From NCBI GenBank assembly GCA_011322135.1, contig DRNP01000004.1, positions 1-33,546 of the forward strand: a DNA stretch of 33,546 bases, in the 5' to 3' direction. This stretch comes from Candidatus Kaiserbacteria bacterium. GTDB lineage: Bacteria > Patescibacteriota > Minisyncoccia > Phycocordibacterales > Phycocordibacteraceae. Shown piece after piece: positions 31,369 to 33,546 of the stretch (position 1 is the stretch's first letter; each line of letters begins with the position of its first letter). The notes beneath the pieces are model-generated. The model had not been told where the DNA came from and did not search any database. It saw nothing but the letters and a program-made list of their open reading frames with translations. Both the position numbers and the translations under genes were made by a program.

Positions 31369-32919
31369 ATGAATGACAAAACCGAACAAAACATACAACA
31401 ACCACCGCAATCAGACGGTTCAAACAATACCGATGCCCAGCAAACAGATGTAGATCAAATAATACCGTCAAAGATTCCAACTCCGATTAACTCCGGAGTG
31501 CGTACTTATGCAAAAGATATGGAGCGTGCAAAAGAAATGTATACCGGGCAGGGCACTCCAGAAGATGACGCAAGTCAAAATGAATCGCAAATTCCTGTTC
31601 CAGATACTCCTGTAAAAGACCATCCCGGTATTCCTCTTGATATGGTTGTCATGCATAGAGAGTCCGAAACAAAAGAAGAAGCCACCCCGAAATCTCATGC
31701 ACACAAAACTCCGAGTGTATCTGCTCCAGAACTTGACTCTAACGAGCAGTATATTCCATCGGAAGAATCAACTGGTGGCGACGAGTCTCTTGCTGTTGAA
31801 ACTACAAAAGAATCAACTGAAAATGATGAGTCATCTGTAGTCGAACCTACAAAAGTGGATATTGATACAAAAAATATCGAGAGACCAAATAAAAAAACAC
31901 CTCTTAGTATGTTTATTGATACACCGAGTGAAGTGCCCTCCGGAAAGATAGAAAGACTTAAAAAGAAAATCTCCGCATCTGCAATCACTCCTCCTCCGCC
32001 AAAACTTCCGGCAACAAACTCTCCAATACATACATATAAAAGTGACTTTGCAGACCATATACATGAGACTAAATCAAAACGTGTTGATGTACTGGTTGCC
32101 GAACAAGATGCTCCAAGAGAGCGTCGTATGCACTCGGCGGCGCCTGCAAGGTCGCACACAATCCTATTTGTCATAGGAGGAACTCTTCTCTTTGCAATAA
32201 GCATACTTGGAGTTTTGTATGTTTATGGATACAACAAGCAACGTTCTTTCGTACAAAACAATCAAACTTCGACCCCGTCTCTCATTGCGTCAGAATCACA
32301 AAAAGAGTTGGTAGGATCCGGACGCTCGCTTTTACACGAAATTGCAGAAGCATCAAAAAAATCCATACCCGATGGCTCGATTACTGTTTTTTATCAAACA
32401 CGCCTCGCAACCACATCGTCCGGTATCTCAACACACGTTCCGTTACTTGGAAGTACGTTTTTTGCGAACCTTTCTATGCCGGTTCCTAATCTTTTGGCGC
32501 GCACAATCGCAAGCGACAGCACAATCGGTATTATTCATTCCGGAAAAGAAACACGTCCGTTTTTCATATTACAAGTAAACTCGTACGACGCGGCGTTTGC
32601 CGGAATGCTTGATTGGGAACATACCATTTCAAAAGATTTATCAGAAATATATCCTGCATATCCTCAAAAACCTGTACCAGGTGCGCAGAGTGCAAGCTCC
32701 ACAGAAAAAATGCAAACTGCCTCGAGCACAAAAAGTGTTTCTCCGCGAACATTCCAAGATGAAATTGTTTTAAATCACGACACGCGCGTACTTCGCGATT
32801 CTAATGGAAATAGTATTTTGATTTATGGGTTTAGAAATAAACACGCTCTTATAATTGCTCGAGACCCGATGGCGTTCGCAGAAATTATAACAAGACTCAA
32901 TAACTCAACCTCTAAATAG
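31369..32919 (+). CDS. Hypothetical protein: acidic low-complexity N-terminus, one TM, extracellular C-terminal domain
   Basis: Complete ORF; AAGGA SD; TM SHTILFVIGGTLLFAISILGVLYVYGY. Confidence 0.75.
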   Translation: MNDKTEQNIQQPPQSDGSNNTDAQQTDVDQIIPSKIPTPINSGVRTYAKDMERAKEMYTGQGTPEDDASQNESQIPVPDTPVKDHPGIPLDMVVMHRESETKEEATPKSHAHKTPSVSAPELDSNEQYIPSEESTGGDESLAVETTKESTENDESSVVEPTKVDIDTKNIERPNKKTPLSMFIDTPSEVPSGKIERLKKKISASAITPPPPKLPATNSPIHTYKSDFADHIHETKSKRVDVLVAEQDAPRERRMHSAAPARSHTILFVIGGTLLFAISILGVLYVYGYNKQRSFVQNNQTSTPSLIASESQKELVGSGRSLLHEIAEASKKSIPDGSITVFYQTRLATTSSGISTHVPLLGSTFFANLSMPVPNLLARTIASDSTIGIIHSGKETRPFFILQVNSYDAAFAGMLDWEHTISKDLSEIYPAYPQKPVPGAQSASSTEKMQTASSTKSVSPRTFQDEIVLNHDTRVLRDSNGNSILIYGFRNKHALIIARDPMAFAEIITRLNNSTSK

Positions 32920-32979: not shown

Positions 32980-33423
32980 GTGGAAAACTCTGTAAATAAA
33001 CCGACCATGAAAGGGTATGCCTCGCTTCGCGCAGCGCAACCAAATGGTGCATATGCATCACTCGTAACAATAGAAGCGGATCTTACACGCGGATTACATT
33101 CTTTTTCCATAGTCGGTCTTGCGGACCGAGCGGTAGAAGAAGCGCGCGACCGTATTAGTGCTGCAATACGTCACACAGGGTTTAAATCACCAAAGTCAGA
33201 AAATCGCAGAATCGTACTTTCACTTTCGCCGGCAGACCTAAAAAAAGAAGGGTCTCACTATGATGTTGCTCTCGCTCTTGCATATTTAACGGCATCCGGA
33301 GATATAAAACTTCCGGAGACATCGATGCTTTTTGCCGGCGAGCTTGCTCTTGACGGAAAAATACGCTCTGTGCATGGTGTGCTACCGCAAGTCCTTGCAG
33401 GAAATAAACGACCACCGGACTGA
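32980..33423 (+). pseudogene. comM: ComM/YifB (Mg-chelatase-like AAA ATPase) N-terminal fragment, reading frame interrupted
   Basis: YASLRAAQPNGAYASLVTIEADLTRGLHSFSIVGLADRAVEEARDRISAAIRHTGF...FAGELALDGKIRSVHGVLPQVLAGNK then out of family into RPPD*; the AAA+ domain is missing. Confidence 0.8.
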
Positions 33424-33546
33424 GGTCCGGTGGTTTTGGGTTTGCCCGCTTAATCGCGGGCTGATACGTGGTTAATCAGAGAGCAACTTGTTGAAGAGCG
33501 ATGGCTGATCAACTTCATTGTGGTGGTATTGATGTTTAACGTACCG
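33411..33546 (+). mobile_element. Possible left end of an IS110-type insertion sequence (structured leader plus transposase N-terminus)
   Basis: Hairpins accaccggac-tgag-gtccggtggt and gcccgc-ttaatc-gcgggc, then ATG at 33501 reading MADQLHCGGIDV (resembles the IS110 DEDD N-terminus), followed in frame by TAA near the window end. Confidence 0.45.

What the first reader, a model, noticed from the sequence alone, without database searches (positions are those of the whole stretch)
32980..33546. comM interrupted by a structured element resembling the left end of an IS110-type transposon
Seen: the ComM frame is good to ...GVLPQVLAGNK and then loses family similarity. The next ~90 bp holds two tight hairpins and weaker stems, followed by ATG GCT GAT CAA CTT CAT TGT GGT GGT ATT GAT GTT (MADQLHCGGIDV). 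Known: IS110 transposases start with a DEDD-type GIDV(H/S)K motif, and their structured left end encodes a bridge RNA. Inference: an IS110-type element sits in comM and the sequence ends because the element is multi-copy. The in-frame TAA after GIDV is a caveat (decay or end-of-contig error).
Basis: partly seen in the sequence, partly recalled or inferred. Interest (0 to 1): 0.7.

Follow-up and report, generated by a model that had tools for sequence, protein, structure and literature searches.

The report
comM split by an IS200-type transposon
The last 140 or so bases of this contig are the right-hand end of an ordinary IS200/IS605-type jumping gene that has inserted backwards into the comM gene of a Parcubacteria-type bacterium; it is not an IS110 element and shows no sign of a bridge RNA.

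Summary
comM (ChlI/YifB family) is good to about 33402 and then meets a multi-copy structured element that ends the contig. The last ~144 bp occur four times in the genome, always at contig ends next to different flanks. The other half of comM starts at the end of contig C24, next to the element's opposite end.

The element is not IS110. The "MADQLHCGGIDV" frame is chance: its TAA is fixed in all four copies, one copy lacks the Asp, and no IS110 domain occurs in the assembly. On the minus strand the last 75 bases read RYVKHQYHHNEVDQPSLFNKLLSD*, the C-terminus of an IS200/IS605 TnpA (Y1/HUH transposase). Both differences between copies are silent in that frame. Related elements occur in about 20 named genomes, mostly Patescibacteria; those measured are about 600-655 bp with tnpA alone.

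The two hairpins are the right-end subterminal palindromes. The guide next to them (AAAG or AAAA) co-changes with the terminal tetranucleotide (TTAC or TTAT), as the IS608 guide model predicts. New member of a known kind; interest low.

The parts
32980..33402 (+). 5' part of comM (YifB/ComM, ChlI-like N-terminal domain), interrupted; the frame runs into the element and stops at 33423
   Evidence: the 3' part with the AAA+ Mg_chelatase and C-terminal domains lies on contig C24
33403..33546 (-). right (3') end of an IS200/IS605-type element, 4 copies in the genome; the contig ends inside it; boundary good to about 1-2 bases
33472..33546 (-). last 24 codons plus stop of tnpA (RYVKHQYHHNEVDQPSLFNKLLSD*)
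   Evidence: 77% identical to residues 127-148 of the sibling TnpA; synonymous variation between copies
33541..33543 (-). codon of the presumed catalytic tyrosine in the class 1 context Y---Q (Y-VKH-Q)
   Evidence: alignment of a homologue to a solved IS200-type transposase; motif definition PMC6006769
33444..33461 (-). right-end hairpin 1, GCCCGC-GATTAA-GCGGGC
   Evidence: the corresponding stem changes on both sides in homologues
33412..33433 (-). right-end hairpin 2, CCACCGGAC-CTCA-GTCCGGTGG
   Evidence: the homologous stem changes on both sides
33434..33437 (-). putative right guide tetranucleotide AAAA, just 5' of the hairpin foot
33404..33407 (-). putative right-end cleavage tetranucleotide TTAT, at the end of the element
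33501..33539 (+).

Best explanation
A small IS200-group element of the IS200/IS605 family (tnpA only, about 600-655 bp judging by relatives) has inserted into comM, antisense to it. The window ends inside its right end. On the minus strand the order is: comM 3' half (contig C24), TTAA flank, left end with hairpins, tnpA, right-end hairpins, terminal TTAT, comM 5' half (this window). By analogy with IS608 and ISDra2, the HUH/Tyr transposase would bind the subterminal hairpins on single-stranded DNA, cut at tetranucleotides read by guide bases at the hairpin foot, and move as a single-stranded circle without target duplication. The insertion parts the N-terminal domain of ComM from its AAA+ motor, so it very probably inactivates ComM. 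Shown: identity of the family, copies, both ends, split gene, guide/terminus co-change. Inferred: single-strand transposition, loss of ComM function, current activity.
For: Four right ends and three left ends, all at contig ends. The two halves of comM sit at the C4 end and the C24 end next to opposite ends of the element, and joining them restores one open frame. The window's minus-strand tail matches the C-terminus of TnpA in a sibling genome. That homologue is Y1_Tnp, E=1.1e-31, and IS200/IS605 transposase NF033573, E=2.7e-35, above its cut-off, while it is below the cut-off for REP-associated transposases. A close homologue matches the solved ISHp608 transposase. Homologous elements share left end, tnpA, right-end hairpins and terminus. 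Guide AAAG goes with terminus TTAC in the 20 such right ends counted; AAAA goes with TTAT in the four window copies and in L060, from another lineage. Siblings carry an uninterrupted comM (14 of 16 other same-genus genomes).
Against: The middle of this particular element is not in the assembly (no Y1_Tnp hit in the bin), so its full tnpA is inferred from relatives; a contig of about 630 bp would often fall below a binning length limit. The fourth left end was not found. The simplest in-frame join of comM has one residue more (AGLKN) than the relatives aligned (AA-KR), so the exact boundary or the pre-insertion sequence is not settled.
Confidence: 0.96

Rival explanations
1. IS110-type element with a bridge RNA at its left end, the transposase starting MADQLHCGGIDV.
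For: Superficial match of GIDV to the IS110 N-terminal motif; structured sequence next to it.
Against: TAA right after GIDV in all four copies, and GIGV in one copy; no PF01548 in the assembly, though the same search finds it in 4 control genomes; no Rfam match; the tail is coding on the other strand.
Confidence: 0.01
2. Non-autonomous derivative or REP/REPtron: only the ends are mobile and there is no full tnpA in this genome.
For: No Y1_Tnp hit in the assembly; some order-level relatives match only in the terminal hairpins.
Against: All four copies still carry the last 24 codons of tnpA, with only synonymous differences between copies; the homologue scores as IS200, not as REP transposase; Y---Q and not Y---NP context.
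Confidence: 0.1
3. Assembly artefact: an unrelated repeat falsely joined to comM, with comM intact in the cell.
For: Draft genome of 46 contigs; all copies lie at contig ends.
Against: Two independent contigs carry complementary comM halves next to the left and right ends of one element in the expected orientation; rpmA (C22, left end) and rplU (C9, right end) pair up the same way.
Confidence: 0.03

Closest known systems
IS200/IS605 family, IS200 group (tnpA only); IS608 and ISDra2 as mechanistic models
   Same: Y1/HUH transposase of about 150 aa, subterminal hairpins at both ends, TTA-type left flank, guide-like tetranucleotide 5' of the hairpin foot (PMC6006769, PMC5934647)
   Different: No room for tnpB in the homologues measured, unlike IS608; right-end pair AAAG/TTAC or AAAA/TTAT instead of GAAT/TCAA of IS608; two hairpins in the right end and an additional long hairpin in the left end
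IS110 family with bridge RNA (IS621)
   Same: A mobile element with structured non-coding sequence
   Different: No DEDD transposase, no sign of a bridge RNA, opposite strand and end
REP-associated tyrosine transposases (REPtrons)
   Same: Y1 transposase superfamily, palindromes
   Different: Multi-copy element with tnpA sequence in each copy; Y---Q context; below the NCBIfam REP cut-off
comM interruptions in Acinetobacter (AbaR and other elements)
   Same: Mobile DNA interrupts comM (PMC11472951)
   Different: There often Tn7-like islands that target comM; here a small IS whose other copies lie beside unrelated genes, so no sign of comM targeting

Membership tests
IS200/IS605 family (IS200 group) | Y1_Tnp / IS200 transposase | tested here: met
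   Homologue with matching C-terminus and right end: PF01797 E=1.1e-31, NF033573 121.4 bits vs cut-off 55. In the window only 24 codons are present.
IS200/IS605 family (IS200 group) | Catalytic Tyr in context Y---Q (class 1) | tested here: met
   RYVKHQ at 33529-33546, minus strand; definition PMC6006769
IS200/IS605 family (IS200 group) | HUH motif | tested here: met
   H-I-H or H-V-H (DHIHV, DHVHF, DHIHL) in homologues; not testable on the window itself, which holds only the C-terminus
IS200/IS605 family (IS200 group) | Subterminal hairpins at both ends | tested here: met
   Right end z=-5.8; left end at C24 z=-7.2 and -8.3 for the two strands; right-end stems vary on both sides in homologues
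IS200/IS605 family (IS200 group) | Guide/cleavage tetranucleotide pairing | tested here: met
   Right end: AAAG/TTAC in 20, AAAA/TTAT in 5, of which 4 are copies in this genome. Sequence co-change only, no cleavage assay. Not worked out for the left end.
IS200/IS605 family (IS200 group) | Insertion 3' of a fixed short target, no target duplication | tested here: inconclusive
   All three left flanks end in TTAA and no duplication is seen, but no conspecific empty site is available and the join has one residue more than relatives
IS110 family | DEDD transposase (PF01548) | tested here: not met
   No match in the assembly, controls positive; frame closed and motif not conserved between copies
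IS110 family | Bridge RNA in a long non-coding end | tested here: not met
   No Rfam match (whether Rfam holds such a family was not checked); the structured stretch is the right end of another IS family
REP-associated tyrosine transposase | Y---NP context of the catalytic tyrosine; NCBIfam NF047646 | tested here: not met
   Y---Q context; 30.8 bits vs cut-off 80

The most novel reading that the evidence does not exclude
A Patescibacteria-centred IS200-group lineage that moves by single-strand transposition with its own guide code (AAAG/TTAC, shifted to AAAA/TTAT in this genome), and that has disabled natural transformation in one lineage by splitting comM.
Probability: 0.3. Interest if true: 0.3.

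Novelty: new member of a known kind. Interest (0 to 1): 0.15.

Why it matters
It corrects a tempting IS110/bridge-RNA reading. It shows that a short peptide motif on the wrong strand can mislead, and that contig ends in draft genomes of very small bacteria can mark collapsed insertion sequences. The natural change AAAG/TTAC to AAAA/TTAT fits the IS608 guide model in another lineage. A split comM in one species of a group with otherwise intact comM is a small data point on competence in these bacteria.

Tried and rejected
IS110 domain search of the own genome: nothing. Rfam search of the last 247 bases: nothing. Pfam with the 24-residue tail alone: nothing, too short. Y1_Tnp search of the own genome: nothing, because the middle of the element is missing from the bin. 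Reading the structured end as a TnpB omega-RNA end was considered and dropped: the homologues hold tnpA alone within about 600-655 bp. Literature searches for IS200 in Patescibacteria or insertion sequences in Parcubacteria found only a paper on another subject.

Full report
What was claimed.

The repeat. The window is the whole of contig C4 of a 656,807-base draft genome with 46 contigs. The last 144 bases (33403-33546) occur four times: at the end of C4, at both ends of C9 and at the start of C10, 99-100% identical and next to unrelated flanks (sequences).

The frame. ATG...GTT TAA is at 33501-33539. The TAA stands in all four copies, and the C10 copy has GGT for GAT, that is GIGV. This is not how the start of an IS110 transposase would behave. 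No IS110 domain is found in the assembly, while the same search finds it in four control genomes. On the minus strand the last 75 bases read RYVKHQYHHNEVDQPSLFNKLLSD*, and the two C10 differences are silent there.

Identity. A DNA search of 93 genomes of the genus found one related right end outside the own genome, in G049. There it follows a 149-residue frame ending RRYVSHQHHHNEVEQPSLFEKLTA. That protein is Y1_Tnp (E=1.1e-31) and an IS200/IS605 transposase in NCBIfam (E=2.7e-35). The window's tail matches its residues 127-148 at 77%. A close homologue matches the solved ISHp608 transposase. The window tail contains a tyrosine in the context Y---Q that marks class 1 (IS200) rather than REP enzymes (PMC6006769).

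Distribution. A scan of named genomes returned 20 loci, nearly all Patescibacteria (Taylorbacteria, Magasanikbacteria, Moraniibacteriota, Paceibacterota, Uhrbacteria, Doudnabacteria and unnamed Parcubacteria), with single records labelled Omnitrophota and Oxalobacteraceae. In wider searches the element is patchy: 2 of 387 class-level genomes with a close TnpA, and 6 of 397 order-level genomes with a related right end, own genome included. Elements with both ends measured run 595-655 bases from AAACC to TTAY, which leaves room for tnpA alone.

The other end and the split gene. The C-terminal part of comM (Mg_chelatase E=5.5e-79 and Mg_chelatase_C) is on C24, beginning at the contig's end behind a structured leader. 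That leader has two further copies, at the starts of C22 and C32. All three are preceded by TTAA and begin TCTATAAACC, like the left ends of homologues. Joining the comM flanks in a script gives one open frame through the junction. Relatives have uninterrupted comM frames, mostly of about 515-530 codons. Those aligned have one residue fewer at the junction, so the exact boundary is open by a few bases.

Other insertions. rpmA (L27) on C22 next to a left end and rplU (L21) on C9 next to a right end make a second pair. The remaining ends lie beside rplI (L9), a MacB-type permease gene and lepA. Four left ends are expected and three were found.

Structure and guide rule. The right end folds as two hairpins, z=-5.8. 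Across homologues both stems change on both sides (for example GCCCGC/GCGGGC to GCCTGC/GCAGGC, and CCACCGGAC/GTCCGGTGG to CCACCGGCC/GGCCGGTGG). Just 5' of the last hairpin the bases are AAAG when the element ends TTAC (20 right ends) and AAAA when it ends TTAT (the four copies of this genome and L060 from another lineage). This is what the IS608 model of guide and cleavage-site pairing predicts; in IS608 the left guide AAAG reads TTAC (PMC5934647). In that count the regular expression also caught inner left-end hairpins and other palindromes; I set those aside by inspection.

Function. By analogy with IS608, TnpA would excise and insert single strands. ComM is a helicase for recombination of incoming DNA, and its interruption lowers transformation in Acinetobacter (PMC11472951). 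Here the insertion parts the N-terminal domain from the AAA+ motor. A 404-codon frame reads from the element's left end into the C-terminal half, but whether it is expressed is unknown.

Verdict. A real insertion in comM, of an ordinary IS200/IS605-type element. The IS110 and bridge-RNA reading is rejected. Interest 0.15.

Noticed in passing
G000 C22:1-145 and C9:6570-6714: A second copy of the element appears to sit between rpmA (L27) and rplU (L21); C22 and C9 can be joined through it, as C24 and C4 can through comM.
   Followed up: partly
L011:1116-2330 (G000 C24): A 404-codon frame starts (GTG) inside the element's left end and runs in frame into the C-terminal half of comM.
   Followed up: no
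window 33402/33403 and L011 about 2235-2250: The simplest in-frame join of comM has one residue more than the relatives aligned; either a lineage-specific codon, homopolymer slippage or an imprecise boundary.
   Followed up: partly
L096, L100 (G678), L098, L101 (G777): Matches restricted to the last 46-57 bases of the right end; in L096 no transposase frame is listed in the stretch examined. Possible non-autonomous or decayed copies.
   Followed up: partly
L043 (G087): The homologous tnpA in a single-contig genome is split between two frames, so that copy looks decayed.
   Followed up: no
window 31369-32919: 516-codon frame directly upstream of comM without a Pfam match; by eye it has one likely membrane segment.
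   Followed up: no
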